DNA of 42,287 nucleotides, from the IMG/VR virus record IMGVR_UViG_3300036852_000161, positions 1 to 42,287 of that record. The stretch is one strand, 5' to 3'. The position numbers and the translations under genes are program-made. The number at the start of each line of letters is the position of its first letter. Within the stretch, counting starts at the first letter, position 1. Positions 10,893 to 23,868 of this stretch are shown one piece after another. A model generated the notes under the pieces. That model was not told where the DNA came from and did no database searches. It saw only the letters and a list, made by a program, of their open reading frames with translations. Source of the DNA: a virus.

Positions 10893-10922
10893 TAGCCTGG
10901 CGCATACTAGTTTGCCAACCAT

Positions 10923-10945: not shown

Positions 10946-10947
10946 GT

Positions 10948-11400: not shown

Positions 11401-11424
11401 TACATAGACCAAAGGATTAGCGAC

Positions 11425-11448
11425 GGGCCTCTAGGGGCCCATTTTTTT
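11425..11448 (+). terminator. Intrinsic terminator after repressor-like gene
   Basis: GGGCC(T) at 11425-11430 pairs with (G)GGCCC ending at 11440, followed by A and seven T residues (11442-11448). It isolates the repressor-like gene from the downstream operon, which has its own promoter. Confidence 0.9.
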
Positions 11449-11471
11449 GCGCACGTTTATTCATTAGAGTA

Positions 11472-11499
11472 TTGACAATCATGCGGCATTGAATAATAT
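11472..11499 (+). promoter_or_regulatory. Strong sigma-70-type promoter of rightward operon
   Basis: TTGACA (11472-11477), 16-base spacer, TAATAT (11494-11499): a perfect -35 and a good -10. The -35 is within the near-palindrome ATTGACAAT (11471-11479), which resembles ATTGCAAT over the leftward promoter. Predicted start near 11506, upstream of the gene at 11534. Confidence 0.85.
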
Positions 11500-11533
11500 A
11501 GCTCCCGTGGTCGGCAAACACGAGGGCAGGAAG

Positions 11534-11767
11534 ATGAACGCGATTACAGAGATGAGCAAACGCGAAACCTTCACGACGGCCGAAATCGAGGTCCTCCGAT
11601 CTGAGTTTTCTAAGCTGAATACGGTCAACACGGACCGCCTCTCCTGTTTCCGCAAGATCTTCTCCGATTGTGGTGACAAGGCAATCCGCCAGCTCTCAGA
11701 GGCTCGCGTGAAGTTCGTATCTTCTCTCGCGCTCAATGAATGCATTCGTCGTGGACTGGTGTCCTAA
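11534..11767 (+). CDS. First gene of rightward operon, hypothetical
   Basis: A 77-residue helical protein (MNAITEMSKRETFTTAEIEV). Start ATG 11534 has AGGA 4-5 bases upstream and lies after the predicted transcription start; an earlier in-frame ATG at 11489 lies inside the promoter. Preceded by AAACACGAGGGC with a 6-base gap, a cassette shared with the next gene. The first gene of a pL-like operon often antagonises host or repressor functions, but no motif is recognised. Confidence 0.65.
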   Translation: MNAITEMSKRETFTTAEIEVLRSEFSKLNTVNTDRLSCFRKIFSDCGDKAIRQLSEARVKFVSSLALNECIRRGLVS

Positions 11768-11795
11768 CTCCCCATCCAAACACGAGGGCGCAGCG

Positions 11796-12050
11796 GTGCA
11801 GGTAGAGATCACTTCCAAGGTTGAAGTCACTGTCGAACTTCTCGCGCAGTGCTTCGCTGGGCTGGACGATGACAGCCAGTGCAGATTCTTCGTGGAAGTC
11901 GCGCGTATCGCATCGACATGGCCTGGCGGTGGAGATTCTCAGTGGTACTACGTTGGCGGTCACCTTCGTAACTGCGAGTGCTCGACGCCAGAGGCGCGAG
12001 AAATGATCTCGCAAATCCATCACTACATGCAGACGAGCACGCACACATGA
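11796..12050 (+). CDS. Hypothetical protein
   Basis: An 84-residue protein starting GTG 11796, chosen because AAACACGAGGGC precedes it with exactly the same 6-base gap as in the previous gene. Contains a W-Y-Y-V and two Cys in a short NCEC segment. No family recognised. Confidence 0.6.
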   Translation: MQVEITSKVEVTVELLAQCFAGLDDDSQCRFFVEVARIASTWPGGGDSQWYYVGGHLRNCECSTPEAREMISQIHHYMQTSTHT

Positions 12051-12178
12051 CCGACACCATCGAAATCGAGATCCTTCCATTTGCCGATTTCATCATCGAT
12101 CTCGGCTCCATGTCTCCGCCTGCGATACCGGAAGGCGATGGTGGCGGGCAGGGGTTGGTTGAGAACGAGGAACTGTGA
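12047..12178 (+). CDS. Small acidic protein
   Basis: A 43-residue, strongly acidic protein (MTDTIEIEILPFADFIIDLG) with ATGA overlap with the upstream stop. The opening MTDTIEIEI is common among small phage proteins of unknown role. Function unknown. Confidence 0.55.
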   Translation: MTDTIEIEILPFADFIIDLGSMSPPAIPEGDGGGQGLVENEEL

Positions 12179-12357
12179 TGTATCACCAAGGCGCGCGAGT
12201 CCTGAGCAATCCGCCGAAGCGTCTGAAGCTTCCCGAGCGACAGCTCGACAAGATCACCTTCAGTGTGAAGCAAGAAGCCCGTCGGTTGGCAGATGCGAAT
12301 CGTTTGAAAAAGCCATGGGCTCGTCGTTGGCTGAAAGAGAACGGTCACTGGATGTAG
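12178..12357 (+). CDS. Small basic protein
   Basis: A 59-residue basic protein (MYHQGARVLSNPPKRLKLPE, then KKPWARRWLKENGHWM). ATG overlaps the previous TGA by one base; GAGGA lies 8 bases upstream. Alternating acidic and basic small products are typical of this operon. Function unknown. Confidence 0.6.
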   Translation: MYHQGARVLSNPPKRLKLPERQLDKITFSVKQEARRLADANRLKKPWARRWLKENGHWM

Positions 12358-12383
12358 GTCTGAGATTAGAGCGGGAGAAGAGC

Positions 12384-12668
12384 ATGGCTCACGAAATACT
12401 TATGACTCCAGACGATGTTCGTCTTACGCGCGCGGCTTTAGAGGCCATGGAACGCGAGGCGATTCGCACACGCAATATTTGGCAACTTAGATTAGAGCGT
12501 GAAATGTCGTACGGCCCTCACCACGCGCATGCGGATGCCGACTATAAAAAGAAAATTTCAGAGCGTTCTGAATTGGCTAAGAAATGCAGGACGCTACTGG
12601 ACTCGGACGCCTTTCCGGCTGAATACCGCTTTCCGCATCTATATCAGAGCGGTGAACAGCATGAGTAA
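12384..12668 (+). CDS. Hypothetical helical protein
   Basis: A 94-residue charged helical protein, MAHEILMTPDDVRLTRAALE, probably coiled-coil. The ATG is preceded by TAGAGCGGGAGAAGAGC, a leader almost identical to that of the gene at 12926. Function unknown. Confidence 0.65.
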   Translation: MAHEILMTPDDVRLTRAALEAMEREAIRTRNIWQLRLEREMSYGPHHAHADADYKKKISERSELAKKCRTLLDSDAFPAEYRFPHLYQSGEQHE

Positions 12669-12909
12669 ACGAACACAATGGAAGAAGTCCGAGCCGCGGC
12701 TCGTGCGACTTAGACGCGGATCACCGGGGCAATGGAATTTCTACTTCCCCGGCTGGCGGCGAGTGCCGGAAAAAACGTGGACGGTTGAGCGAATCTCGTC
12801 CTTCGTCTATCGCATCACCGCAATAGGCGTTGAGCCGCACGACTGCCGGAAACTCGCGCAGGTACGCGAGTTCATCGCTCAGCAGTACGAATTTTTGCCG
12901 AACACGTAG
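12661..12909 (+). CDS. Hypothetical basic protein
   Basis: An 82-residue Arg/Trp-rich protein (MSKRTQWKKSEPRLVRLRRG) overlapping the upstream gene by 8 bases. Aromatic and basic residues alternate as in small beta-barrel nucleic-acid binders, but no family is recognised. Confidence 0.55.
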   Translation: MSKRTQWKKSEPRLVRLRRGSPGQWNFYFPGWRRVPEKTWTVERISSFVYRITAIGVEPHDCRKLAQVREFIAQQYEFLPNT

Positions 12910-12925
12910 AGCGGGGGAGAAGAGC

Positions 12926-13126
12926 ATGAACAAACCTGCTAAAGAACAGTTCGAGGCGGCCGCGCGAGCGCATCGTTGGGAGTACTCGGCAGCGCACGGC
13001 GGTTGGATTCATCCGGAGGAGTACGACCCGGAACGCGGCTACGCAATCCAGTCTAGCGCGGAGGATGCGTGTTGGTTGCATGAGATCGACGTCCGCGCGT
13101 CACACGACCCTCGGCCGACTCGCTAA
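12926..13126 (+). CDS. Hypothetical protein
   Basis: A 66-residue protein (MNKPAKEQFEAAARAHRWEY). Leader TAGAGCGGGGGAGAAGAGC is shared with 12384. The pattern with W-x-Y and H-P-x-x-Y is seen in small unknown phage proteins. Function unknown. Confidence 0.6.
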   Translation: MNKPAKEQFEAAARAHRWEYSAAHGGWIHPEEYDPERGYAIQSSAEDACWLHEIDVRASHDPRPTR

Positions 13127-13145
13127 CAAATCAGAAGGTAGTCAC

Positions 13146-13517
13146 ATGACGAAGATTGAAAAGTTTCAGCAGGCAAAGGCCACGGCTCATCACATCCGTA
13201 ACGATGTGGCGCAGATCTTGGGGCGCGACAGTCCACAGAACGACAAGCACAGCTTCGACGTGAAGTTCACCGGACTGGCGAGCGAGTCGTGGAATCCAAT
13301 GCTGTTTCAGATCCACGTCTCGCACGGCTACTACGGGAGCTCAAGCGGTTACTCCAATTCGAGCGACCACCTCGGGAAGTATTTGGCCGCATCGATCCAG
13401 CGCCACGCAAGCGCACTCCTCGAGTTCGCTTCAAAGCTCGCTGACGACGATGCGGAGAAAGCGCGGAAAGAAGCAGAAGACGAAGCCAAGGCCGTACTCC
13501 AAACCACGGCGGCATAG
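13146..13517 (+). CDS. Hypothetical protein
   Basis: A 123-residue protein with an SD (AAGGTAG) before ATG. Middle part has a Tyr/Gly/Ser-rich loop (HGYYGSSSGYSNSSDH); the C-terminus is a long charged helix (LADDDAEKARKEAEDEAKAV), probably coiled-coil. It precedes genes for DNA metabolism. No family recognised. Confidence 0.65.
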   Translation: MTKIEKFQQAKATAHHIRNDVAQILGRDSPQNDKHSFDVKFTGLASESWNPMLFQIHVSHGYYGSSSGYSNSSDHLGKYLAASIQRHASALLEFASKLADDDAEKARKEAEDEAKAVLQTTAA

Positions 13518-13542
13518 TTCCGCTCTCACGAACAGAACAGCT

Positions 13543-13818
13543 ATGGACAATCAAGTCATATTGACCCGGAACGACCTGACGCGAGAAGTCTGGACTTTCT
13601 GGATCGATTTCCCTCGCATCATTCTGGATCGTTACGAGATCCAGGGTCGCTCGACGCCGCGCCACAAATGGCGAACGCGCGACTACTACTCACGCACATT
13701 TGGACGAGACGGAAAGATTCAGGAGTCAGAGGTTCCATTTCCGCCGTCCGTCACGGACCTAATTCGCAAGCGCGTAAGCGATCAGTTGACAGTCATCAAG
13801 TGGTCCGAGCGTCGATAG
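13543..13818 (+). CDS. Hypothetical protein
   Basis: A 91-residue protein (MDNQVILTRNDLTREVWTFW) rich in Trp, Tyr and Arg, with a C-terminal PPSVTDLIRKRVSDQL. SD is weak. It resembles its neighbour at 13845 in size and its ILDRY / LERDRW-type segments, so the two may be distantly related, but this is uncertain. Confidence 0.6.
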   Translation: MDNQVILTRNDLTREVWTFWIDFPRIILDRYEIQGRSTPRHKWRTRDYYSRTFGRDGKIQESEVPFPPSVTDLIRKRVSDQLTVIKWSERR

Positions 13819-13844
13819 CTCGGCTCTGGAGAAAAGAACCTGTT

Positions 13845-14168
13845 ATGGACGCCAACAACTTCACCGTCGAATTCTCCCTGAACTCCATGCTCACTATCGA
13901 CGACTGGTCGAAGGAGAACGAAGTGCAAATACGCTGCCGAGCGAAGTACTTCGTGGTCGATTGGCTGTTCCAGATCTCCGCCGTGGAGTACCTGGAGCGC
14001 GATCGGTGGATTCCCTTCGTTCTGCCGCCACCGATTCGCAACCAGCTCTACGAATTCGCCGCGAAGTGGCTGAAGGAAGAGGAGCGCGATCGGTACTGGC
14101 GTCGTGTCGAGGATGAGATCACCAGAGCGGATCGGCGCGAGCTGATGGGGTTGGAGAAGGTGTCATGA
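13845..14168 (+). CDS. Hypothetical protein
   Basis: A 107-residue protein (MDANNFTVEFSLNSMLTIDD) with GGAGAAAAG upstream of the ATG. C-terminal half is a charged helix (AAKWLKEEERDRYWRRVEDE). Function unknown. Confidence 0.6.
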   Translation: MDANNFTVEFSLNSMLTIDDWSKENEVQIRCRAKYFVVDWLFQISAVEYLERDRWIPFVLPPPIRNQLYEFAAKWLKEEERDRYWRRVEDEITRADRRELMGLEKVS

Positions 14169-14329
14169 GCGCCTTTCGCAAACGTGCCGAGATGCTGTCG
14201 CTGCCCGCTATGGCGCCGATCAATACGCCGGCATGCGAGCCGCACTGGCACAAGTACGACGTGCCGAGCTGTAAGAGATTCGTATCTGAGCGCAAGCATG
14301 TGCGACCGAAGACAAGTCGAGCTGCATGA
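14165..14329 (+). CDS. Small hypothetical protein (54 aa)
   Basis: A 54-residue protein starting MSAFRKRAEMLSLPAMAPIN, overlapping the previous stop as ATGA. It has HWHKYDVPSCKRF in the middle, with His and Cys that might bind metal. The coupling and the lack of any other gene here support it; function unknown. Confidence 0.5.
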   Translation: MSAFRKRAEMLSLPAMAPINTPACEPHWHKYDVPSCKRFVSERKHVRPKTSRAA

Positions 14330-14501
14330 GTGCGAGCGCTGGGAGCAGGAGCAGCGCTGGCTGATTGAAGATCCTGCATTTGAACAATGGTTGATCGAGT
14401 ACGAACAGGAGATGAACCCGTGCCATTACCTATCAAAGACAACGGCGGAAAAGACTTCAAGAAAGTCCCAGAAGGCGTGCACATTGCAGTCTGCAACATG
14501 A
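14298..14501 (+). CDS. Small hypothetical protein
   Basis: A 67-residue protein, MCDRRQVELHECERWEQEQR, acidic and helical in its first 40 residues. It overlaps both neighbours (32 bases upstream, 82 bases into the SSB-like gene); the last third looks like out-of-frame sequence. Weak SD. Existence is moderately supported. Confidence 0.45.
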   Translation: MCDRRQVELHECERWEQEQRWLIEDPAFEQWLIEYEQEMNPCHYLSKTTAEKTSRKSQKACTLQSAT

Positions 14502-15025
14502 TTGTGGATTGCGGTGTTCAGCCCGGCGGTCGATTCAAACCGCAGCACAAGGTTTACGTGCGCTGGGAAGTGCCTGCTGAGCGCGTCGAATACGAACGTG
14601 ATGGCAAGCCCTACGAAGGTCCGCTATCCATCGGTCGCTTCTACACGGCCTCGCTCAGCGAGAAGTCGCACCTTCGTAAGGATCTCGAGAACTGGCGCGG
14701 TAAAGCTTTCACACGCGAAGAGCTCGATGGCTTCGATCTGTTCAATATTCTGGGAGCCCCGTGTCAGATCATGGTCACGCACACCGTAGGCGACGACAAG
14801 AAGGTCTACGCGAACGTGACTGGTGTCATGGGACTGCCCAAGGGAACACCGAAACCGAAAGCGGAAAATCCTCTCATCAAGTTCGCGCCCGATGATTGTG
14901 AGCAATGGGATCAGCTCCCGCAATGGCTGCAAGAAAAGGTGGAGAACAGCGAGTCAGCGGATACCGCTGGATCGCCCGCGCCTACATCTGATGATTCTTT
15001 CGACGACGATCAGATTCCATTCTGA
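14420..15025 (+). CDS. SSB-like single-stranded DNA-binding protein
   Basis: A 201-residue protein ending DSFDDDQIPF, an acidic tip very like the DDDIPF tail by which bacterial SSB recruits partner proteins. The body (GVHIAVCNMIVDCGVQPGG, GRFYTASLSEKSHLRKDLEN, FNILGAPCQIMVTHTVGDDK) matches a common phage OB-fold-like protein family. GTG 14420 has AGGAGATGA upstream. It precedes NinB and a YbcO-like nuclease, so it likely acts in recombination or replication of phage DNA. The acidic linker before the tip is Ser/Asp-rich, as in SSB. Confidence 0.7.
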   Translation: MPLPIKDNGGKDFKKVPEGVHIAVCNMIVDCGVQPGGRFKPQHKVYVRWEVPAERVEYERDGKPYEGPLSIGRFYTASLSEKSHLRKDLENWRGKAFTREELDGFDLFNILGAPCQIMVTHTVGDDKKVYANVTGVMGLPKGTPKPKAENPLIKFAPDDCEQWDQLPQWLQEKVENSESADTAGSPAPTSDDSFDDDQIPF

Positions 15026-15028
15026 TTT

Positions 15029-15280
15029 ATGCCACTAGTTGTTAAACGGGAGATGGAGGGGGCAGCGCTCACACGCCGCATCGGTGAATACGTGCAGCAA
15101 TTCCTATCACATTTGGAAAGACCCGATGGTCCTGACGAATTAGGGGTTATCCAGCTGTGGGAAGAACTGCGAAACCAGCACGAGGTTTACAGCGGCGTGT
15201 GGGCGTACCTACAAGGATGGCACCGCGCAATGATCAAGCACATCGTGGACCGCTATGTACGAGATTCTTCCAAAGGGTAA
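15029..15280 (+). CDS. Hypothetical protein between SSB-like and NinB
   Basis: An 83-residue helical protein. The start is uncertain: ATG 15029 has no SD, and ATG 15053 has GGGAG only one base away. It overlaps ninB by 26 bases. Function unknown. Confidence 0.55.
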   Translation: MPLVVKREMEGAALTRRIGEYVQQFLSHLERPDGPDELGVIQLWEELRNQHEVYSGVWAYLQGWHRAMIKHIVDRYVRDSSKG

Positions 15281-15650
15281 TCGATCGCTCACGCGCGTCG
15301 TCGGCAAGCTTGCTTCCTTGCCTAAAGATCGCGCCTGGAAGATCGAAATCAGCGAGCACAAGAGTACGCGCAGCAATGAACAGAATGCTTTCCTATGGGG
15401 AGTGGTGTACGAAACCATCGCCCAACATCTGCCCGGCTGGGATGCGAATGACATCCATGAGTACTTCTTGGGCGAACACTTCGGATGGCAGACATTGGAG
15501 GGATTGGGCCGCAAGCGCCTCAAGCCGCGCAAACGAAGCTCGCGTCTCACGACAATCCAGTTCAACAAGTACATTGAATTCATCCAGCGCCGCATGGCCG
15601 AGCACGGCGTCTACATTCCGGACCCCAACGAGAAACGCCATGCAGCTTAA
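15255..15650 (+). CDS. ninB: NinB-like recombination protein
   Basis: A 131-residue protein with the NinB (PF05772) pattern: STRSNEQNAFLWGVVYETIA, DANDIHEYFLGEHFGW, then RSSRLTTIQFNKYIEFIQRR. NinB binds ssDNA and assists recombination in lambda, where it can act in the RecF-like pathway. Length is close to the family norm (about 140). It is followed by a YbcO-like nuclease, the same order as in lambdoid nin regions and DLP12 (ybcN-ybcO). Confidence 0.85.
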   Translation: MYEILPKGNRSLTRVVGKLASLPKDRAWKIEISEHKSTRSNEQNAFLWGVVYETIAQHLPGWDANDIHEYFLGEHFGWQTLEGLGRKRLKPRKRSSRLTTIQFNKYIEFIQRRMAEHGVYIPDPNEKRHAA

Positions 15651-15948
15651 GATCGAAAAGCTCCGCAAACTCGCACGTGGTCGAGTTTGTCTCATCAACA
15701 CGCCAGAGTGCTGCCACGATCCCGAGCGCACTGTGCTCTGTCACATTCGCCGCGGCAATGTCGGCGGGACGGGCCTCAAGCCGCACGACCTCATTGCACT
15801 TCCCGGCTGCGACATCTGCAATGACATATCGGACGGCGGCAGAAAGAGCAGTTGGTCGCGTAGCGAGATCGATGAAGCGATTCTTGGCGGCTATGCGATC
15901 TGGATTAATTACCTGCTGAAACAAGAAATCGTGGTGGTGTGCATATGA
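15640..15948 (+). CDS. YbcO-like (DUF1364) zinc-binding nuclease
   Basis: A 102-residue protein with the DUF1364/YbcO pattern: GRVCLINTPECCHDPERTV, then LCHIRRGNVGGTGLKPHDLI and GCDICNDISDG, giving C...CC...CH...C-x-x-C metal and catalytic residues of an HNH-like fold. YbcO-type proteins are thought to cut DNA during recombination. One departure: the usual C-x-x-C-H becomes CDICND, so the second His of the family is replaced by Asn. Starts by overlapping ninB. Confidence 0.75.
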   Translation: MQLKIEKLRKLARGRVCLINTPECCHDPERTVLCHIRRGNVGGTGLKPHDLIALPGCDICNDISDGGRKSSWSRSEIDEAILGGYAIWINYLLKQEIVVVCI

Positions 15949-16169
15949 TGGCCGTCATCGTCATGCCAGAACGCTGCGCGAGAGCCTTGCAAAAGGTTCT
16001 CGACCGATTCGTGCTCACGACCAATCCAGACGACTTCATGCCCGACGAGCAGCGCGATATCAGTGAGGGACTTGTGCAGTTCTCGGTGGGACTTCGTGCT
16101 GCACAGAAAGGCCAATCACTCACAAACGCACTGTGTCCATGTGAGCCATGCGAGGGAGATCATGAGTAA
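15945..16169 (+). CDS. Hypothetical protein
   Basis: A 74-residue protein (MMAVIVMPERCARALQKVLD) with ATGA overlap with the upstream stop. C-terminus has CPCEPCEGDHE, a C-x-C-x-x-C cluster that may bind metal. Function unknown. Confidence 0.55.
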   Translation: MMAVIVMPERCARALQKVLDRFVLTTNPDDFMPDEQRDISEGLVQFSVGLRAAQKGQSLTNALCPCEPCEGDHE

Positions 16170-16434
16170 TCAAGAACAGCTTCCTGCTGAGAAACAAGTC
16201 CGGCACGCGTCGCGGCTAGACGACTCGAAACAATCGCTTTGCGGTGAGAGTCCAGGATATTTGACACGACCGCGCGAGACCATTAATTGCCCCACTTGCC
16301 GCGTGATCCTCAATCACGTCAGAGATCGATACGCACAGGACGGATATAGCGATCGACGTCTGACGAAGGATGAGATGCGCCAGGCCGCGCGGGAAATGTA
16401 TGCCGATCTCGTCGGCGGAGATATTGAAGGATGA
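16162..16434 (+). CDS. Small zinc-ribbon-like hypothetical protein
   Basis: A 90-residue protein (MSNQEQLPAEKQVRHASRLD). LCGESPGYLTRPRETINCPTC gives C-x16-19-C-x-x-C, with HVRDRY after it, a likely half zinc site. A pattern of this sort (K-x-x-H...C-G...C-x-x-C) is common in phage proteins read against a whole-genome background of such genes. GGGAG precedes the ATG. Function unknown. Confidence 0.6.
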   Translation: MSNQEQLPAEKQVRHASRLDDSKQSLCGESPGYLTRPRETINCPTCRVILNHVRDRYAQDGYSDRRLTKDEMRQAAREMYADLVGGDIEG

Positions 16435-16610
16435 ACGCGCAACCGTCTGAGCCGATGATGACCGTCAAGGCTCACAAGAAAATTCTCTACGAGATCCGTT
16501 GCAAGGTCGCCGGGGCCAACCTTGATCTAGGCGCCTATCTAGATCCAGATCACACCGGTGAAGAGCTGGACGCCATCGTTGAATGGCTCGACAAAATGGG
16601 TGAAGCATGA
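16431..16610 (+). CDS. Small hypothetical protein (59 aa)
   Basis: A 59-residue protein (MNAQPSEPMMTVKAHKKILY) with ATGA overlaps on both sides (16431-16434 and 16607-16610). Tight coupling on each side is strong evidence that it is translated. Function unknown. Confidence 0.65.
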   Translation: MNAQPSEPMMTVKAHKKILYEIRCKVAGANLDLGAYLDPDHTGEELDAIVEWLDKMGEA

Positions 16611-17044
16611 ATGCTCAGCAGCCCGCAGACACGATGTGCTACGTGCACGAGATCAAGGAAGTACCTCGATATGGAATTCCTGGAACGATCTGGCAAAAGA
16701 ACTTTTGCCCGTACTGCAAGCTCGAGCGCAAAGATGCCGAGCTTGCAGAGCTTCGCGAAAGGCTCGTCATGCTCGAAACCGCCAACCAGCTGAACAAGGA
16801 GACGGCGACTAAGCAGTGCGATGGATTGCGCAAGCTAAGCGATGCGCGCCTGACCTGGGCGATGGTGCACGGCGAGGAAACGTGTTCCTGCTGTGACGCT
16901 CTGGATCAAGCGATTCGAGAATTCACCGCAACTCCGGAGACGATTGCAGCGATGCAGTCCGGCATTGAAACTTGTGACGACTGCGGTATGTCAGGCGACC
17001 TCATCGACTTTAACGGCCGCAAGATTCATGAGGTGTGCCCGTGA
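16607..17044 (+). CDS. Cys-rich coiled-coil protein
   Basis: A 145-residue protein. A CPYC motif (about 34-37) is followed by a coiled coil (ERKDAELAELRERLVMLETA), then CSCC (about 93-96) and CDDCGM with a last Cys near the C-terminus. The layout is metal site, helix, metal site, which suggests a dimeric zinc protein. It starts a run of Cys-rich small genes. No known family recognised. Confidence 0.6.
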   Translation: MNAQQPADTMCYVHEIKEVPRYGIPGTIWQKNFCPYCKLERKDAELAELRERLVMLETANQLNKETATKQCDGLRKLSDARLTWAMVHGEETCSCCDALDQAIREFTATPETIAAMQSGIETCDDCGMSGDLIDFNGRKIHEVCP

Positions 17045-17883
17045 ATGAGCGGCTGCGAGAGATACTCGCCATTGCCCAAGATACCTCCTACGCAGCCGAG
17101 GACCGCATAGAGATGATTCGTGCTGCTTTAGAAGGGACGACAGCGCGCGAACCGGCGAGATTAACGTCTTGCATCTTTGTCGGATCGCCACCGAAAGACT
17201 TTAGCTCGTGGAGCGAATGGTCATCGCGGGCGGTACTATCAGGCGTTCGTATTGAGGCGATAACAGCTCTCGAACCGGCGGCTGTCGACCCCGCTGGGTA
17301 TTTGCATGAAATCATCGAGCCATTTCGGCAGCCGATTCAGATGTACTCGTCGTCAAGTAAAAATCCGTGGTCGCATTGGGTCCAGAATCATCTGGACCAG
17401 TGTGAGTACAAGTGCACGCCTCTATATGCGCGACCCGCTCCACCGCCGGAAGCCGTTTGGTGTTTGTGCCCGCCGACTCGCTGTAATGGGGGGCGAGCTG
17501 ATCAGTGCAGATTCAGAGCCGCCTCACCGCCGAGAGCTTTGCCATTTGATTCAAATGTGCTGACAGCGCCTCTCCCTCCAATCACCTTCGGTCTGCTTGA
17601 TCGGTTTGAAGGGATGCAGCTCCTAGAACTCGGGGATCAGGAGGAATTGAGATGGTCGCAGGCCGCGATCGACTTTGCGGCTCTTGTGAGGACGGATGCT
17701 CCACCACCGAGCGCGTGGCTGATCTTCTACGAGGATCACGTCGTCACTCCCGAAGTGTTCGTCGGCGAGGGAGCCAAAGAAGCCGCGTACAAGCGATTCA
17801 ACCAGGCGCGCGACCACTGGAGTTGCCACCTATTCGCTCGGGTCGCGGATAGCACAGCTTCAACGAAGGCGTCTGAGTTATGA
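17041..17883 (+). CDS. Ea22-like hypothetical protein
   Basis: A 280-residue protein from GTG 17041 (GTGA overlap). It contains TPLYARPAPPPEAV, the P-L-Y-A-R-P segment common in lambdoid Ead/Ea22-type proteins, a Cys cluster (CLCPPTRCNGG), and a C-terminal AWLIFYEDHVVTPEVF / NQARDHWSCHLFARV segment found in the same group. These accessory early proteins vary in sequence and have no clear biochemical role. It is the longest gene of the accessory part before integrase. Confidence 0.55.
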   Translation: MNERLREILAIAQDTSYAAEDRIEMIRAALEGTTAREPARLTSCIFVGSPPKDFSSWSEWSSRAVLSGVRIEAITALEPAAVDPAGYLHEIIEPFRQPIQMYSSSSKNPWSHWVQNHLDQCEYKCTPLYARPAPPPEAVWCLCPPTRCNGGRADQCRFRAASPPRALPFDSNVLTAPLPPITFGLLDRFEGMQLLELGDQEELRWSQAAIDFAALVRTDAPPPSAWLIFYEDHVVTPEVFVGEGAKEAAYKRFNQARDHWSCHLFARVADSTASTKASEL

Positions 17884-18218
17884 GAGACGAATTCTTCGAA
17901 GCGCAGTTCAAGTCCCATTCGGACGATTCGGTCGTGCAGTGCCCATACTGCAAGTACGAATATCAGCCCGAAGCCGAGGACTATTCGGAAGACACGCGCG
18001 AGCATGAATGCAGTGAGTGCGAGAAAAAATTCTGGTTGCACCAAAACTTCGAGGTTTCTCATCACGTGAAGCCGGATTGTGAACTGAACGGCGAGCAGCA
18101 CAAGTGGGACTTCATCAGGAAACGTGGCGGCATCGATACGCAGTGGCAATCGTGCGACGTGTGCGACAAGTGGCGGCGCACGCCTAGCTCAGCAGCGGGA
18201 GAGCGCGATGAGCAATAA
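17880..18218 (+). CDS. Zinc-ribbon protein
   Basis: A 112-residue protein with CPYCKYEYQP and CSECEKKF about 25 residues later, a complete two-knuckle zinc ribbon (about 20-50), and CDVCDKWRR near the C-terminus. Opening MRDEFFEAQFKSHSDDSVVQ is acidic. ATG overlaps the previous stop. Likely nucleic-acid or protein binding; function unknown. Confidence 0.65.
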   Translation: MRDEFFEAQFKSHSDDSVVQCPYCKYEYQPEAEDYSEDTREHECSECEKKFWLHQNFEVSHHVKPDCELNGEQHKWDFIRKRGGIDTQWQSCDVCDKWRRTPSSAAGERDEQ

Positions 18219-18450
18219 GTACACCGTCGAAGTTTCGTTCACGCCAATCTGCTCTGCGTGTGGCGCAGAGCTTGAGTGCGGTCTAACGGAAAGCAGGCCC
18301 AACAAAAGCCATGATCCGTTCTGGCGCGACAACCCGTACGAGAGAAAAGATCGGCGCGTGTTCGTTCGCGCATGCGGTAAGTGCTTCGTCTACAAAGGGG
18401 ACCTGCAAGCATCATCGCAAGAGCCATCAGAGAGCGAGGGGCGGTCATGA
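18208..18450 (+). CDS. Small zinc-binding-like protein
   Basis: An 80-residue protein with CSACGAELEC near residue 15 and ACGKCF near residue 56, an apparent C4 zinc site. Leader and start GAGCGCGATGAGCA are identical, with the same offset, to those at 22010-22023. Function unknown. Confidence 0.6.
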   Translation: MSNKYTVEVSFTPICSACGAELECGLTESRPNKSHDPFWRDNPYERKDRRVFVRACGKCFVYKGDLQASSQEPSESEGRS

Positions 18451-18890
18451 AGCGGTATACGGCCGAAGAGAATTCTCACTGCAACGGCATCGAGCCGGTC
18501 TACGACATGTGTGGCCAGTTCTATCTCGTGTCCGACGTCCAGCAGTTAGCTCGCGAGTGCTTGCCGTATGTGACAGCCATTAGTATCGGCGAATCGATAG
18601 AGCAACACGCCGCAGTCGTACGAAAGCTCCGCGCCATCATCGGCGAGGCGACAGCGCAGGAGAGTGTTGCTCAGCGAATCGTGGAAGCGCAAAAGCAACC
18701 TGGCGTCGCAGCCATGGTCGAGTTGATGGAAAAGGCGGCATGCTCATCGCCGGAAACGAGAGCTGATGCGGTTAGCAAGCTCACCTGGACCTGCGGCGGA
18801 TGCGAGACGCTGAATCATCCAGAAGCCATAACCTGCAAGCACTGCGGCATCAAGCCGTATTCAGGAGCGAACCGGGAAGGTGAGGTATGA
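18447..18890 (+). CDS. Hypothetical protein with C-terminal zinc ribbon
   Basis: A 147-residue protein. The first 110 residues are mainly helical; the end WTCGGCETLNHPEAITCKHC (segment about 115-134) is a RanBP2-like W-x-C-x-x-C...N...C-x-x-C zinc finger. Starts with ATGA overlap. Function unknown. Confidence 0.65.
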   Translation: MKRYTAEENSHCNGIEPVYDMCGQFYLVSDVQQLARECLPYVTAISIGESIEQHAAVVRKLRAIIGEATAQESVAQRIVEAQKQPGVAAMVELMEKAACSSPETRADAVSKLTWTCGGCETLNHPEAITCKHCGIKPYSGANREGEV

Positions 18891-19117
18891 GAAAGACCGT
18901 GAGTTTGCCGCGAGATCACTACAACGCCATCAAGCGAGTGCTGAAGATGACGCGAACATTCATCGCTGCCAACGTTGAGAGCGACACTCTGCACGCATGC
19001 GGCTACGGCTTGATTACTGGCGCTGAGATCGATCAGCACATCTGTGCAGCAATCAAACTCATGCCCACGAAACGCAGAGCATCCGCGCGTCGATCCTCTG
19101 AGCATCAGGAGAAATGA
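18887..19117 (+). CDS. Small basic hypothetical protein
   Basis: A 76-residue protein (MRKTVSLPRDHYNAIKRVLK) with ATGA overlaps on both sides; the C-terminus is strongly basic (TKRRASARRSSEHQEK). Function unknown. Confidence 0.6.
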   Translation: MRKTVSLPRDHYNAIKRVLKMTRTFIAANVESDTLHACGYGLITGAEIDQHICAAIKLMPTKRRASARRSSEHQEK

Positions 19118-19395
19118 AAATGAGAATCTGGAAGTACCAATTGGACGTAACCGAGAAGCAGTCGCTTGAGCTTCCGCAGGGAGCGAAGATCCTGACAGTT
19201 CAAATGCAGCAAGAATCCCCGCAGCTTTGGGCTCTCGTGGACGAGAAGAAGTTTGACGACATGGAGATGCGTCAAATTGCGATCTACGGCACCGGCAATC
19301 CATTTCCCGATGGCGATCTCGGCAAGTACATCGCGACCTTCCAGATGCATGGTGGACTACTAGTATTCCACGCGTTCGAGATCGTCAACGCCTAG
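19114..19395 (+). CDS. DUF7352-like conserved phage protein
   Basis: A 93-residue protein with MRIWKYQLDVTEKQSLELP, GAKILTVQ, WALVD and FQMHGGLLVFHAFE, the pattern of a widespread small phage protein family (DUF7352-like). The family is of unknown function. The start overlaps the previous stop as ATGA; an alternative ATG is at 19120. Confidence 0.7.
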   Translation: MKMRIWKYQLDVTEKQSLELPQGAKILTVQMQQESPQLWALVDEKKFDDMEMRQIAIYGTGNPFPDGDLGKYIATFQMHGGLLVFHAFEIVNA

Positions 19396-19410
19396 CGGAG
19401 GAGCAAGTCA

Positions 19411-19659
19411 GTGCAGAAGTACTACGCCATCGATCTCAGCACACAGGACGGCCCGCTACGGGCGGCTGTATATCGTGCTGACGAAGCCGACGCGCGCATC
19501 GCTGCGGCCGAGAAGATCATGCGCGACGAGCTGCTGATCGACGTGGGCCAGCAAGAGGAGCAAGGATATTGCATGGCCTGCGGTCATCGAGGTCCGACGG
19601 TTGCGACAATTGAACACGCTAACGACTGCGCGTTGAACATATGGCTAGCGAGATTCTGA
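19411..19659 (+). CDS. Small hypothetical protein with Cys/His motif
   Basis: An 82-residue protein from GTG 19411. It has YCMACGHRG followed by H-A-N-D-C, a C-x-x-C...H...C zinc-type arrangement. The leader AGGAGCAAGTC plus one base before GTG is the same as at 21406. Function unknown. Confidence 0.6.
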   Translation: MQKYYAIDLSTQDGPLRAAVYRADEADARIAAAEKIMRDELLIDVGQQEEQGYCMACGHRGPTVATIEHANDCALNIWLARF

Positions 19660-19883
19660 GCATGTTAGACAAATACAAAGAATGGCACGCCTATGTAGCA
19701 ATGGTCATTGGGATGTTAGGTGGAGCTTGGGCAGTGACGTACCTCTTCCATCTGGGTCCCGACATTTCTGCCAGTACCGCCCCATGGTGGAGTTTTCCGT
19801 ACTACTTGACCGCGTTGGTCGGCGGCTTCGTCGTGTTTCTTTTTACGGCCGCATCCCGTCTTGTGGATGCTTCATCGATTTGA
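19641..19883 (+). CDS. Small two-helix membrane protein
   Basis: An 80-residue protein with two clear transmembrane segments: about residues 18-37 (VAMVIGMLGGAWAVTYLFHL) and about 53-71 (YYLTALVGGFVVFLFTAA). It overlaps the upstream gene by 19 bases. In a temperate phage such a protein could be a superinfection-exclusion or holin-like product, but nothing in the sequence decides this. The start could also be ATG 19662. Confidence 0.6.
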   Translation: MASEILSMLDKYKEWHAYVAMVIGMLGGAWAVTYLFHLGPDISASTAPWWSFPYYLTALVGGFVVFLFTAASRLVDASSI

Positions 19884-19909
19884 CGGTACGTCTGAATCCT
19901 AATGGTTAG

Positions 19910-20290
19910 ATGAGCATGAGTGTCGTTGACTTCGACGAATTGTCTAAACTGGCCGCCACCAAGAAGGTGAAAGCGGTAAGTGCGTGGTGCGCTCGCAATC
20001 GCATCAAGACTTGGCGCGATACCAAAGGACGCCCCTGCACTGATTCGGCTGCGCTTCACCGCTCGCTCTTTCGGGACGAACACGAAGAAGCTCCCAATTT
20101 CGAACTACCGTCATGGCAAAACTCAGTTGCGGTCTTGACATCCCTGCCGTCACGGAAAAAGACGGTCGGTACTACAAAATCGTCAAGAACAAGTGGCACC
20201 CGCTCACGCGAATCGACGAAGGCGTCAACGCCCTCCTCCGATTCCTCGAAGACTTCGACCCCTTCCGGCCCGGAACCATCCGAGAGCTGA
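19910..20290 (+). CDS. DUF4224-like protein upstream of integrase
   Basis: A 126-residue frame. Residues 1-55 match the DUF4224 pattern (FDELSKLAATKKVKAVSAWC, then GRPCTDSAAL), a small winged-helix-like protein found directly before phage integrases and probably acting as excisionase or cofactor. The last 60 residues, Ser/Thr/Lys-rich, lie over the integrase gene and look like out-of-frame sequence. The 178-base overlap is far longer than others in this operon; see findings. Confidence 0.65.
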   Translation: MSMSVVDFDELSKLAATKKVKAVSAWCARNRIKTWRDTKGRPCTDSAALHRSLFRDEHEEAPNFELPSWQNSVAVLTSLPSRKKTVGTTKSSRTSGTRSRESTKASTPSSDSSKTSTPSGPEPSES

Positions 20291-21033
20291 TCGCCATGTA
20301 CCGCGCGCTAGGGATGTCTGAGCTCAAGCCCGCGACTGTCGTGGACTACGAGCGCATCCTACTTCGCCTGGAGCACCACTTCGGGCACATGGGAATCGAA
20401 TCTCTGAAGCCGAGTCAGGTTGCCCATTTCCTTGAGCGTCGCAAGAAAGCGGGGCGCGGCGGGACTCGAGCGAACCGTGAAATGGCCGTGCTCGCCGCCG
20501 CCTACAACTTCGGCATGCGCAACTTATATTGCGAATACAACCCCTGCAAAGGGATCGCTCGCAACAAGGAGCGGCCCAAGAAGGGAGCGGTATCCAACGA
20601 GTCGTTCTTGGATGTCTTCAATCGTGCGAACGAGGCGTTCCAGGATCTCATCGCGGCCGACTATCTCTCTGGCGTCCGGCAAACCGACATCATTGGCTGG
20701 CGTCGTACGCAGCATATGAAGCCCGCAGGGATCGATTACGTGCAGAGCAAGACCGATAAGCCTCACCTCGTGGAGTGGTCGCCAGCGCTGCGGTACTTCG
20801 TGGATAGAGCGATCGCACGCGAGCCTGACTCCGAGTTCATCTTCACGAATACTGAGGGTGAACCTTGGACGGTCTCGGCCATTGCGAGCCAGCTCGCGCG
20901 CCTGGACTCCCCTTGGTGTTTCAAGGATCTTCGAGCGAAGGCGCAGACCGACGCGGCGCATTCGGTGCTCGGTCATGGGGCGGCGCTCGAGGCGGTCTAT
21001 CGCAAGAAATTGGTCACGCAACCGGTCCGATGA
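20113..21033 (+). CDS. int: Tyrosine integrase
   Basis: A 306-residue tyrosine recombinase that would insert the phage at a host tRNA-Asn gene. N-terminal arm-binding part contains DGRYYKIVKNKWHP; a SAM-like core-binding domain covers about 55-150. Catalytic residues by alignment: Arg189 (LSGVRQTD), Lys213 (QSKTDK), Lys271/Arg274 (FKDLR, where Lys replaces the usual His, as in many phage integrases), His288 (LGHGA) and Tyr296 (AVYRKK). The attP lies just downstream. The start has no convincing SD, which fits coupling to the overlapping upstream gene. Confidence 0.92.
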   Translation: MAKLSCGLDIPAVTEKDGRYYKIVKNKWHPLTRIDEGVNALLRFLEDFDPFRPGTIRELIAMYRALGMSELKPATVVDYERILLRLEHHFGHMGIESLKPSQVAHFLERRKKAGRGGTRANREMAVLAAAYNFGMRNLYCEYNPCKGIARNKERPKKGAVSNESFLDVFNRANEAFQDLIAADYLSGVRQTDIIGWRRTQHMKPAGIDYVQSKTDKPHLVEWSPALRYFVDRAIAREPDSEFIFTNTEGEPWTVSAIASQLARLDSPWCFKDLRAKAQTDAAHSVLGHGAALEAVYRKKLVTQPVR

Positions 21034-21035
21034 GT

Positions 21036-21230
21036 CTCTAAGAGAAGTAGGAAATCACCGTGTTTTTGACCCCTGTTTCTGATACCTTCTTAGAGGACGC
21101 GCGCGAGAATTTCGGCGAGAAACCGCATTTGACAGAGGGACTGTTAATCCGTTGGTCGGCGGTTCGAATCCGTCCCGGGGAGCCAGTTTCAGGCTCATAT
21201 CCCTCTAAGAATGCACCACAGTCTCTAAGA
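21036..21230. repeat. Four CTCTAAGA sites around attP (arm-type site candidates)
   Basis: CTCTAAGA at 21036-21043, 21203-21210 and 21223-21230 on the plus strand, and inverted (TCTTAGAG) at 21088-21095. Two extend to TCTCTAAGAGA. They flank the tRNA-like core on both sides, as integrase arm-type binding sites do. Confidence 0.7.
21138..21185 (+). other. attP core: 3' part of tRNA-Asn(GTT)
   Basis: The sequence from GGACTGTTAATCC through the T arm GGCGG-TTCGAAT-CCGTC, acceptor strand CCGGGGA, discriminator G and CCA is the 3' half of a tRNA-Asn. No D arm or 5' acceptor strand precedes it, so it is not a working tRNA. It would rebuild the 3' end of the host gene after integration. Confidence 0.9.
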
Positions 21231-21252
21231 GACGCTGCTGGAGCACATAGAT

Positions 21253-21390
21253 ATGAGTGACGACAAGCCCCGCCTAATTCCCATCCCCACTCCCTCCGAC
21301 GTAGAGGCCATGAGAGCGGATCTTGGGCAGCCGTTCCCTATCGAGTACGCAGGTCGCTGGTACGCGGTTTCGTACTCACTCACAGCTTGA
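21253..21390 (+). CDS. Small hypothetical protein (45 aa)
   Basis: A 45-residue protein (MSDDKPRLIPIPTPSDVEAM, ending WYAVSYSLTA). It begins just beyond the last arm-type site and is followed after 15 bases by the next gene. No clear SD. Small proteins of this composition are common in phage accessory operons. Existence is moderately likely. Confidence 0.45.
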   Translation: MSDDKPRLIPIPTPSDVEAMRADLGQPFPIEYAGRWYAVSYSLTA

Positions 21391-21405
21391 GGTAGGAGCA
21401 AGTCT

Positions 21406-21804
21406 GTGAATCCGCCGCCGACAAGAGATGAAATGTTCGCCGCTGTCGAATTCGGTAGCGCCGACGAGGACCACTGGCACAGCTACTTCAGGGCGTTCGG
21501 TGGTGGCGACTGGATAGATGTGGCCATGGAAGGGACAGCCATGCTAGCGCGCGCCTTACACGTGGAGATCGAAGAATATTCCCCGCTCTCTAATGCAATC
21601 CATGCTGTCGCAGCTCAGGGCGGAGCAGTTGCATATCGGAATGTCGCCCAGGTACTGGGATTGGACGGCGATGTCCTGGAGAGAGCGATGGGGCATTTAC
21701 TAGAGCTTGAGCCTGACGCCAGGGGAATGGAGAAATTAATGGAAGCCTACCGTGAAGTTTTGAGCTGGCGAACTGCTCCTCTGAACGGAGCTGACGATGT
21801 GTGA
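21406..21804 (+). CDS. Hypothetical protein
   Basis: A 132-residue helical protein from GTG 21406; TAGGAGC lies upstream in a leader shared with 19411. Contains EDHWHSYFRAF near residue 21. Function unknown. The post-attP position means that in a prophage it lies at the opposite end from the integrase. Confidence 0.6.
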   Translation: MNPPPTRDEMFAAVEFGSADEDHWHSYFRAFGGGDWIDVAMEGTAMLARALHVEIEEYSPLSNAIHAVAAQGGAVAYRNVAQVLGLDGDVLERAMGHLLELEPDARGMEKLMEAYREVLSWRTAPLNGADDV

Positions 21805-22030
21805 CTGCAAAGTCTGTAGCGATGATCGCGCCTTCATTCTAAAGGCGCTGAAGCGGCTAAGCTCTGAGAGGCTCGCGGAGTTGATTGGGGCGAGCAATCA
21901 AGCTGATATTTCCCCAGCCGATTACACATCCGAGCCACCAATCTTGCGTGATCGATATGGATCTGATGAGGCTTGGAGCATAGCGGTACTTGATCGAGCC
22001 GGTCTTAAGGAGCGCGATGAGCATGGCTGA
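21797..22030 (+). CDS. Small hypothetical protein
   Basis: A 77-residue protein (MCDCKVCSDDRAFILKALKR) with C-x-C-x-x-C at its N-terminus. Overlaps the upstream gene by 8 bases and the downstream one by 14. Function unknown. Confidence 0.6.
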   Translation: MCDCKVCSDDRAFILKALKRLSSERLAELIGASNQADISPADYTSEPPILRDRYGSDEAWSIAVLDRAGLKERDEHG

Positions 22031-22250
22031 GGTTGCGCCATGGCGAGATTTCGCCGGCAATGAAATTCATAACGGAGACGTCATTTGCCACCCGTCCGGA
22101 GAACGCGGCCGAGTTGTGTTTCTCGCTGATGAAGTGGAGCCGTCGGATCAATGGCGCGTGGACTATGGCGATGGAAGTCCACTATCACGGCTCTGCCTGC
22201 AGATCGGCGACAAAGGCAGAGCAGCCGTCAACGCCGAAGTTAAGGAGTGA
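22017..22250 (+). CDS. Small hypothetical protein, KOW/SH3-like
   Basis: A 77-residue protein with GNEIHNGDVICHPSGERGRV and a W-R-V-D-Y-G-D-G segment, the look of a small SH3-like barrel found in phage proteins. ATG 22017 has AAGGAG 5 bases upstream; the GAGCGCGATGAGCA cassette is shared with 18208. Function unknown. Confidence 0.6.
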   Translation: MSMAEVAPWRDFAGNEIHNGDVICHPSGERGRVVFLADEVEPSDQWRVDYGDGSPLSRLCLQIGDKGRAAVNAEVKE

Positions 22251-22258
22251 GATAGTCC

Positions 22259-22579
22259 ATGCAACCGCATATTGAGATCCGCATTCAGCTCGATCCCTAT
22301 CGCTCCGATAGTGACGAAAGGATCGTACTGCCGATCGACAAATACCTCGTGCGCGAGGCTGCGCAGATGCTGGACTTTCCGAAACGTGGGACGGACCCGC
22401 TAACTGAAGCAATATTTTGCACGCCAAGGGTTACACGCGAGTCAGTCAGCGAGGACCGCGTAGCGCTGGCAGACGCAGCGGCAAGGCATGTTCGTGCCAA
22501 GTTACTCGAAATGCTCGGGTCGAACGACACCGAAAATGGCTATAAGCGACCAGCTCTCAACACAGGATCAGCTCCGTGA
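22259..22579 (+). CDS. Hypothetical protein
   Basis: A 106-residue protein (MQPHIEIRIQLDPYRSDSDE) with helical C-terminus. No motif recognised. It is coupled to the next gene by a GTGA overlap. Confidence 0.6.
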   Translation: MQPHIEIRIQLDPYRSDSDERIVLPIDKYLVREAAQMLDFPKRGTDPLTEAIFCTPRVTRESVSEDRVALADAAARHVRAKLLEMLGSNDTENGYKRPALNTGSAP

Positions 22580-22833
22580 ACTTCCAACAGTCGGCCGACC
22601 AGTGGCTTTGTTTCAAAGAAGAAGCCGATCCGTCATTCGTCGGGGAACTTCGCCTTGAGCAGGAAGGCGGCGACGACTACCCGTACTTTTACTTCCGCCC
22701 GGCACCCGACCGACTGCTGAGCTGCCGCGATTGTCGAAAGATCATGGAGAAGCTGTCCGAGTTGAACGGCGAATTGGCCTTTAGCGATAGCTCATCGCCC
22801 AGCGCACCAAGCAACACACGCGGTGACGTATGA
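22576..22833 (+). CDS. Small acidic hypothetical protein
   Basis: An 85-residue acidic protein from GTG 22576, with YPYFYFRPAPDRLLSCRDCR in the middle (C-x-x-C). GTGA and ATGA overlaps at its ends. Function unknown. Confidence 0.6.
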   Translation: MNFQQSADQWLCFKEEADPSFVGELRLEQEGGDDYPYFYFRPAPDRLLSCRDCRKIMEKLSELNGELAFSDSSSPSAPSNTRGDV

Positions 22834-23048
22834 AGTTGTCTCTCAGAGAATTTGAAAGGATGCGGGAGCTTCTAGGCGAAGTGAAAGAATCTCTTTTCTG
22901 GCGTGAAGCATTGGGCCGCGACGGTAGCTTCTGCGTCGGATGCAACAGTCTCGATTACCAGGAGCACGAGGAACGCTGCCTTTACGCGCGCATCCAAGCT
23001 TGCTTGAAATCTAGAACAGCGCCCAGCGCAGGAGACCAGCATGGATGA
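22830..23048 (+). CDS. Small hypothetical protein with Cys cluster
   Basis: A 72-residue protein (MKLSLREFERMRELLGEVKE) with FCVGCNSLDYQEHEERC, a C-x-x-C...H...C zinc-type site. ATGA overlap. Function unknown. Confidence 0.6.
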   Translation: MKLSLREFERMRELLGEVKESLFWREALGRDGSFCVGCNSLDYQEHEERCLYARIQACLKSRTAPSAGDQHG

Positions 23049-23274
23049 ACTCGTATTCACCTCACCTATCGGGGATCTGTTGATAACGAGAAAATGTCAC
23101 CCGCCTCTTGACGTCAAGGCGGGTCAGCAATTCAAGATTGAAGTTATCCCTAAAGGTATAAGCCAATCGCATTGGATAAAAATCGCGCGAGAGCGAACTG
23201 CGCGAGGCGATCCAGTGACTGGAATTCTCGAATTGTCGTCGATTTATGGACGAGGCGAGCGGCGCAGCACATGA
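23041..23274 (+). CDS. Small hypothetical protein
   Basis: A 77-residue beta-rich protein (MDELVFTSPIGDLLITRKCH). CAGCGCAGGAG ends 6 bases before its ATG, a cassette shared with the genes at 23449 and 23652. Function unknown. Confidence 0.6.
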   Translation: MDELVFTSPIGDLLITRKCHPPLDVKAGQQFKIEVIPKGISQSHWIKIARERTARGDPVTGILELSSIYGRGERRST

Positions 23275-23456
23275 TTAGTGTCCTACCGAAATGCCTCGAT
23301 GAGTGGCGCCCTTTGGTGGAGGAGCGAAAGCAAGGCGTCACATACTTCTTTCTTGAGGGAACATACGGGTTCGGTAAGTATGAAATATCGCCTTCAGTGG
23401 AAGAGAATTTCTTCTACATTAGACCGATGAGCAGCGCAGGAGCCGACAATGGATGA
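23271..23456 (+). CDS. Small hypothetical protein
   Basis: A 61-residue protein (MISVLPKCLDEWRPLVEERK) with ATGA overlap with its upstream neighbour. Function unknown. Confidence 0.55.
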   Translation: MISVLPKCLDEWRPLVEERKQGVTYFFLEGTYGFGKYEISPSVEENFFYIRPMSSAGADNG

Positions 23457-23655
23457 GTGCGTCCGAATCTACCAAGAAGCGCGCCGACGATTCGACGAAG
23501 ACCAGCAGCGCTACGAGCGTCAACGCCGTCAGTGCGAACTAACGCAGGCTGCGATACAAGCAGCCATCGATCTTTACATGGCGCAGCTCTCAGCACCTTG
23601 GCAGGCTTTGGCTTGGCATATTCGGGCCACCGACAGCGCAGGAGACAATCAATGA
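23449..23655 (+). CDS. Small helical hypothetical protein
   Basis: A 68-residue Gln/Arg-rich coiled-coil protein (MDECVRIYQEARRRFDEDQQ). CAGCGCAGGAG ends 6 bases before the ATG. Overlaps both neighbours by a few bases. Function unknown. Confidence 0.6.
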   Translation: MDECVRIYQEARRRFDEDQQRYERQRRQCELTQAAIQAAIDLYMAQLSAPWQALAWHIRATDSAGDNQ

Positions 23656-23819
23656 CGTGGTCAAAGGATCAAGAGATTATGGGCGGCCAGTTGTGGTCGA
23701 CAATGTCGGATGTTAGGAAAGCTCAGGAAGAAAATGAAAATATGCGGACTCGCATGGAAGCACTGGAGAAACGCGTAGAGCAGCTTGAGTTGCTATTAAG
23801 TAACCTCACCCGCCCCTGA
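23652..23819 (+). CDS. Small coiled-coil protein (55 aa)
   Basis: A 55-residue protein whose second half is a canonical heptad coiled coil (MRTRMEALEKRVEQLELLLS). ATGA overlap; CAGCGCAGGAG lies 7 bases upstream. Likely dimeric or trimeric; function unknown. Confidence 0.6.
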   Translation: MTWSKDQEIMGGQLWSTMSDVRKAQEENENMRTRMEALEKRVEQLELLLSNLTRP

Positions 23820-23868
23820 GCGGATAGAGGGGATAGACTGGAAATAACGGATAGGGAGGCAAACGGAT

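What the first reader, a model, noticed from the sequence alone, without database searches (positions are those of the whole stretch)
11516..23644. Five families of duplicated ribosome-binding cassettes before unrelated genes
Within the rightward operon, near-identical leaders recur at fixed distance from starts of unrelated genes: AAACACGAGGGC-N6 (starts 11534, 11796); TAGAGCGG(GG)GAGAAGAGC (12384, 12926); GAGCGCG-ATGAGCA (18208, 22017); AGGAGCAAGTC-N1 (19411, 21406); CAGCGCAGGAG-N6/7 (23041, 23449, 23652). This looks like boundary sequences through which gene cassettes are gained, duplicated or swapped, or like sites for a common translational regulator.
Basis: partly seen in the sequence, partly recalled or inferred. 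Interest (0 to 1): 0.65.

Follow-up and report, generated by a model that had tools for sequence, protein, structure and literature searches.

The report
Repeated start-site leaders between phage genes
In a virus of bacteria, several unrelated neighbouring genes begin with the same short stretch of DNA just before their start; the same is seen in many other phages and is best read as the scar left when small genes are slotted into, or lost from, a gene row exactly at gene starts, an already known kind of phage evolution rather than a new system.

Summary
All five leader families are present as written, and they exceed chance: among 42 gene starts of the rightward operon, 6 leader pairs share at least 11 nt in register against 0.2-0.6 expected; a gene-call-free count gives 6 against 0.15. 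Corrections: the E motif has a fourth copy inside a gene (18652), B has a third degenerate member (12661), C and E lie in the coding tail of the upstream gene, and D alone could be chance. Matching leaders sit within three genes of each other in 5 of 6 pairs (P 0.0006). Across 174 unrelated phage contigs, adjacent non-homologous genes share such leaders about 8 times more often than distant ones, with no similarity outside the leader and none in coding controls. In related phages, gene-size gains and losses break at gene junctions, and in P22 versus MG40 a gene is present or absent exactly between two 25-nt leader copies. So the best reading is short direct repeats flanking gained or lost gene cassettes. 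No close relative of this phage was found, so this could not be shown in the window itself. A shared translational regulator is not supported. New member of a known kind.

The parts
11515..11533 (+). Leader A copy 1 (CAAACACGAGGGC-aggaag), in front of gene 11534-11767, first leader behind the putative operon promoter
   Evidence: exact match; promoter-like site 11472-11499
11534..11767 (+). Orphan gene (77 aa) lying between the two A copies; 262-bp start-to-start unit
11777..11795 (+). Leader A copy 2, in front of gene 11796-12050 (GTG start)
12367..12383 (+). Leader B copy 1, in front of gene 12384-12668
12645..12660 (+). Degenerate third B leader (AGAGCGGtgaacAGC) in front of gene 12661-12909, inside the 3' end of gene 12384-12668
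12907..12925 (+). Leader B copy 2 (2 nt longer), in front of gene 12926-13126
18201..18214 (+). C copy 1, GAGCGCGATGAGCA: end of gene 17880-18218 plus first codons of gene 18208-18450
22010..22023 (+). C copy 2: end of gene 21797-22030 plus first codons of gene 22017-22250 (PHROG 19209)
19399..19410 (+). D copy 1, AGGAGCAAGTC, in front of gene 19411-19659
   Evidence: weakest family, may be chance
21394..21405 (+). D copy 2, in front of gene 21406-21804; the two D copies flank integrase plus attP
20113..21033 (+). Integrase, inside the segment flanked by C and D copies
   Evidence: PHROG 1 integrase E 1.4e-26; Pfam PF02899
21135..21185 (+). Putative attP core, identical or nearly so to the 3' end of bacterial tRNA-Asn(GTT)
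23024..23040 (+). E copy 1 (CAGCGCAGGAG-N6), in the coding tail of gene 22830-23048, in front of gene 23041-23274
23432..23448 (+). E copy 2, in the coding tail of gene 23271-23456, in front of gene 23449-23655
23634..23651 (+). E copy 3 (CAGCGCAGGAG-N7), in the coding tail of gene 23449-23655, in front of gene 23652-23819
18649..18663 (+). Fourth E-like copy (CGACAGCGCAGGAGA) inside gene 18447-18890, not at a usable start

Best explanation
The repeated leaders are short direct repeats at gene junctions, left by the gain (or available for the loss) of one- to few-gene cassettes in a mosaic early operon of a temperate phage. A gene that enters at the stop/start junction of a resident gene, joined by short homology in the ribosome-binding leader, leaves the same leader before itself and before the resident gene; recombination between the copies can remove it again. 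Here A flanks one gene, B two, E two and one. D flanks the integrase-attP module and C flanks a larger segment around it (more tentative). Shown here: the repeats, their excess, their concentration in neighbouring genes, the lack of any similarity outside the leader in the pooled set of other phages, and presence or absence of a gene between two leader copies in other phages. Inferred: that the same process made the copies in this genome, and the enzyme (a NinB-like recombination mediator and an ssDNA-binding-like protein are encoded in the same operon; not tested).
For: Excess and register. Neighbour clustering in the window: 5 of 6 pairs within 3 genes, P 0.0006. General: adjacent non-homologous genes share leaders of at least 11 nt at 6.07 per 1000 pairs against 0.72 for far or opposite-strand pairs (odds ratio 8.5, Fisher P 8e-9), at least 12 nt odds ratio 17, no such effect in coding controls; shuffling gene order within contigs gives mean 5.3, maximum 13, against 17 observed in 2000 shuffles. 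Identity outside the matching run is background (27-30%) up- and downstream, so it is not old gene duplication. Worked cases: P22 eaF between two copies of CAGCCCAATGAGCAACATCGACAAAC, one copy and no eaF in MG40 and GE_vB_TR; HK97 gp61 between GGGCTGCATGA copies, empty site in HK022, HK106, phi458. Breakpoints at junctions in 50 insertions. Leaders are genome-specific: 16 relatives of gene 22017 lack leader C; no listed contig holds two A or two E copies. Literature: a gene insertion with a repeated upstream-gene tail (Island3 gene 68) and a 29-bp repeat flanking four genes (LRRHood), PMC3029335.
Against: No relative of this phage is close enough to show an empty site. In 20 insertions in other phages with both breakpoints at starts the flanking leaders share only 3-6 nt, so most cassette exchange does not leave or need a long repeat. 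C and D are not neighbours (11 and 5 genes apart). One E-like copy is inside a gene. Breakpoints at junctions are also what selection alone would leave.
Confidence: 0.6

Rival explanations
1. The leaders are sites for a common translational (or other) regulator, like the Start-Associated Sequences of Cluster K mycobacteriophages: genes with the same leader are co-regulated.
For: Fixed distance to starts and inclusion of the Shine-Dalgarno; restricted to non-structural genes; precedent of start-associated repeats in TM4 (PMC3203893; recovered here as one family of 18 pairs).
Against: Five unrelated sequences of two or three copies instead of one consensus; spacing and length vary within B and E; matches concentrate in neighbouring genes here and in other phages, which a trans-acting regulator does not predict; orthologues of gene 22017 lack the leader.
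Confidence: 0.1
2. Chance similarity forced by the Shine-Dalgarno, the stop/start overlap and codon usage at gene ends.
For: Such constraints raise leader similarity (leader pairs sharing at least 8 nt are 3-4 times commoner than in coding controls); 33 of 174 contigs have at least one 11-nt pair; D is mostly Shine-Dalgarno.
Against: These constraints are in the between-phage null, which still gives 0.2-0.6 pairs against 6; rotation 4 of 2000; neighbour clustering P 0.0006.
Confidence: 0.1
3. Remnants of tandem gene duplications: leader and gene were copied together and the coding parts have since diverged or been replaced.
For: Neighbouring position; P22 eaF and eaD share the first six codons as well.
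Against: In 17 adjacent pairs of other phages identity outside the run is at background on both sides; the window proteins that share a leader show no evident similarity by eye in their translations (not aligned pairwise) and no common family; coding would have had to diverge completely while 12-20 nt stayed identical.
Confidence: 0.08
4. Neighbours share leaders because each block was imported together from a donor phage whose genes all carry that leader (block import, not insertion at a leader).
For: Different families occupy different blocks of the operon (A, B and E); TM4-like genomes with one common leader exist.
Confidence: 0.12

Closest known systems
Short conserved boundary sequences of lambdoid phages (Susskind and Botstein 1978; Clark et al. 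2001 HK620, as cited in PMC3029335)
   Same: Short sequences at gene junctions; gene presence or absence breaks there, as seen here for P22 eaF and HK97 gp61.
   Different: There the same boundary is shared between phages; the window's leaders were found repeated only within this genome and no exchange partner is known.
Island3 gene 68 and LRRHood genes 43-46 (mycobacteriophages, PMC3029335)
   Same: Accessory genes flanked by direct repeats at gene ends, single copy in relatives; in Island3 the repeat is the coding tail of the upstream gene, as in families C and E.
   Different: Repeats of about 50 and 29 bp against 11-19 nt here; relatives available there, none here.
Start-Associated Sequences of Cluster K mycobacteriophages (PMC3203893)
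   Same: Repeats that include AGGAG a few nt before starts of unrelated non-structural genes.
   Different: One 13-bp consensus in 11-19 copies, conserved between phages; here five different sequences of two or three copies, private to one genome.

Membership tests
Start-Associated Sequences (SAS) | A single conserved motif (GGGATAGGAGCCC) in 11-19 copies per genome | tested here: not met
   Five different motifs of 2-3 copies at starts; TM4 positive control gives one family of 18 pairs
Start-Associated Sequences (SAS) | Located 3-7 nt before start codons of non-structural genes | tested here: inconclusive
   Distances 0-7 nt to the start; all in the non-structural operon, none in structural genes; the fourth E copy is internal
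Start-Associated Sequences (SAS) | Motif conserved in related phages | tested here: not met
   Leaders of 16 relatives of gene 22017 lack it; no listed contig with two A or E copies. Only distant relatives were available
Boundary sequences / direct repeats flanking gene cassettes | The same short sequence at both ends of a gene or gene group | tested here: met
   A flanks one gene, B two, E two and one, D the integration module
Boundary sequences / direct repeats flanking gene cassettes | Relatives lack the cassette and keep one copy | tested here: inconclusive
   Met in P22/MG40 and, less perfectly, in HK97/HK022; not testable for this phage, no close relative
Boundary sequences / direct repeats flanking gene cassettes | Repeat limited to the junction, genes on either side unrelated | tested here: met
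   Repeats end at the junction; background identity outside the run in 17 pairs of other phages; window genes sharing leaders have no common family and no evident similarity in their translations (by eye)

The most novel reading that the evidence does not exclude
Phages gain small genes by a biased process that copies or reuses the resident ribosome-binding leader, so that exact leader sharing between neighbours is a general, countable trace of single-gene accretion; in this phage even the integrase-attP module came in this way, between the two D leaders.
Probability: 0.2. Interest if true: 0.6.

Novelty: new member of a known kind. Interest (0 to 1): 0.35.

Why it matters
How phages pick up single small genes without breaking their tightly packed operons is an old question (random joins sorted by selection, or joins at preferred sequences). 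Exact leader sharing between neighbours that are otherwise unrelated is a simple footprint that can be counted in any phage genome, and it points to particular genes as possible recent arrivals. For this window the result itself is ordinary.

Tried and rejected
Close relatives by DNA in GenBank phages: none. Prophage relatives by gene 14420 in GTDB genomes: none. Leader B in IMG/VR: two hits, each with a single copy and one apparently inside a coding frame. Leaders A and E in IMG/VR: 59 and at least 120 stretches, each listed contig with one copy; used as a broad sample of phage contigs instead. Gene-duplication reading tested by identity outside the run and rejected as the general cause. Empty-site searches for L077 and L150 leader pairs in GenBank phages: no match. 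Regulator reading considered against the TM4 positive control and judged less likely. Lambda's own early genes show no leader pair of 10 nt or more.
Full report
WHAT THE WINDOW IS. The window is a complete-looking virus record of 42,287 bases with a 127-bp direct repeat at its ends, so probably a circular map. Structural genes run leftward (portal PHROG 156); a rightward operon of about 42 small, overlapping genes runs from 10882 to 24126 and holds a NinB-like protein, an HNH nuclease and an integrase, plus a protein (14420-15025) some of whose relatives are annotated as ssDNA-binding. Next to the integrase lies a putative attP core, 21135-21185, matching the 3' end of tRNA-Asn(GTT) in contigs of uncultured Gammaproteobacteria and other proteobacteria. 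Most operon proteins tested have no family match.

THE OBSERVATION. Three nulls agree that this is more than chance. Between-phage leader pairs, which carry the same Shine-Dalgarno and stop/start constraints, predict 0.2-0.6 pairs of at least 11 nt per 861; the operon has 6. Rotating the map of starts over the operon gives 0.46 start-to-start repeats of at least 11 nt against 7 (4 of 2000 rotations reach 7). A count that does not use gene calls, only ATG or GTG behind a Shine-Dalgarno, gives 6 pairs in the operon, 0.15 in simulated sequence, and none among the structural genes; the antisense strand of the operon gave one pair among only 14 sites, not followed up. The operon has 49 direct repeats of at least 11 nt in all, so a single 11-mer such as D means little alone. 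Corrections are listed in the observation check: an internal fourth E copy, a third B member at 12661, C and E inside upstream coding tails, D weak. The start list was made by hand and includes small genes an automatic caller skips, so the size of the excess depends somewhat on it.

ANATOMY. Seen as pairs, the leaders flank units: A one gene (262 bp start to start), B two genes with a degenerate third leader between them, E two genes and then one. The C and D copies are nested around the integrase and attP in the order C, D, integrase-attP, D, C. Five of the six pairs of at least 11 nt upstream of the start are within three genes of each other; random gene order gives this with P 0.0006.

THE SAME THING ELSEWHERE. 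With a simple gene caller on 174 non-redundant phage contigs (about 3,300 genes), adjacent same-strand genes without protein similarity share at least 11 nt of leader in 6.07 of 1000 pairs; distant or opposite-strand pairs in 0.72 (Fisher P 8e-9); at 12 nt the odds ratio is 17. Segments taken inside the same genes show no significant effect. Shuffling gene order within contigs gives a mean of 5.3 adjacent pairs against 17 seen, never reached in 2000 shuffles. Outside the matching run identity is at background on both sides, so only the leader is shared. The method recovers the Start-Associated Sequences of TM4. So the window is a clear but not unique case; 33 of 174 contigs hold at least one such pair. 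Some contigs were fetched with the A and E patterns themselves; of the 17 adjacent pairs only the one in L095 is seen to involve the fetching motif.

TESTING THE BOUNDARY IDEA. No relative of this phage is close enough: relatives found by gene 14420 or 22017 share only that gene with the operon, apart from one locus with a second weak match, and GTDB genomes gave none. I therefore tested it where relatives exist. Among 50 distinct gene-size insertions between related loci, the left breakpoint is within -30..+12 of a start codon in 33 and the right in 27, against 8% expected; the events come mainly from two phage groups, so they are not fully independent. The breakpoints fit the overlapping stop codons as well as the starts, which is what selection for intact genes would leave. 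In the 20 cases with both breakpoints at starts the two leaders share just 3-6 nt: long leader repeats are not required.

WORKED CASES. P22 has the 26-nt sequence CAGCCCAATGAGCAACATCGACAAAC before both eaF and eaD. MG40 and GE_vB_TR lack eaF and keep one copy, the alignment blocks ending and resuming inside the repeat; epsilon15 lacks orf45 and eaF, joined at AGGAG/AGCCCA. In HK97 the methylase gp61 lies between two copies of GGGCTGCATGA; HK022, HK106 and phi458 have ninB joined to ninE through one copy of the left leader (GGC(T/G)GCATGA), and lambda has ninC behind the same leader. These show that a leader repeated before neighbouring genes can mark the ends of a gained or lost gene.

MECHANISM AND LIMITS. 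Most likely, then, the window's leaders are short direct repeats left by, and usable for, gain and loss of small gene cassettes at gene junctions. The step from other phages to this one is inference. The direction (gain or loss) and the enzyme are unknown. The regulator reading is weaker: five sequences instead of one, variable spacing, neighbour clustering, and no conservation at gene 22017 relatives.

COMPARISON WITH WHAT IS KNOWN. The idea of conserved boundary sequences goes back to P22 and HK620 work cited in PMC3029335, and that paper reports a mycobacteriophage gene flanked by a repeated coding tail and a four-gene block flanked by a 29-bp repeat. Start-Associated Sequences (PMC3203893) look similar but fail on copy number and conservation here. 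The window is a new member of a known kind. The neighbour statistic may be worth a proper survey; I did not find it reported in six literature searches of an open-access library, which is not proof of absence.

Noticed in passing
window 21035-21232: Candidate integrase arm-type sites around attP: TCTCTAAGAGA at 21035 and 21222, and partial copies at 21088 (inverted) and 21203, on both sides of the tRNA-Asn-like core 21135-21185.
   Followed up: partly
window 21135-21185: attP core matches tRNA-Asn(GTT) 3' ends in 15 contigs of uncultured Gammaproteobacteria or proteobacteria (metagenome-assembled genomes), a hint at the host.
   Followed up: partly
window 18649-18663: 15-nt repeat CGACAGCGCAGGAGA inside gene 18447-18890, shared with the 23631 leader; the protein has a separate zinc-ribbon-like C-terminal part, so this could be a fused former junction.
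   Followed up: no
window 9046-9168: Short tandem-like repeats of 22-23 nt (TGGGCGCAGCTCCTGCGGGGGT) on the left arm.
   Followed up: no
window 1-127 and 42161-42287: Exact 127-bp terminal direct repeat, consistent with a circular or complete genome.
   Followed up: no
L083 1-2740: Another phage contig whose adjacent genes carry near-identical leaders (CAAAGGAGAATCAAGA, TCTACAATTCAAAGGAGAA), a stronger case than the window.
   Followed up: no
L040 (MW202692): Podovirus with TAAATTGTAAGGAGCAAT and related leaders before several distant genes on both strands, closer to a genome-wide start-associated sequence.
   Followed up: no
L262 (P22) 5468-5512: A 32-45 nt island at the ead start is conserved in phages that otherwise do not match there (one search hits H120-H123, H125), a boundary sequence in the classical sense.
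   Followed up: partly
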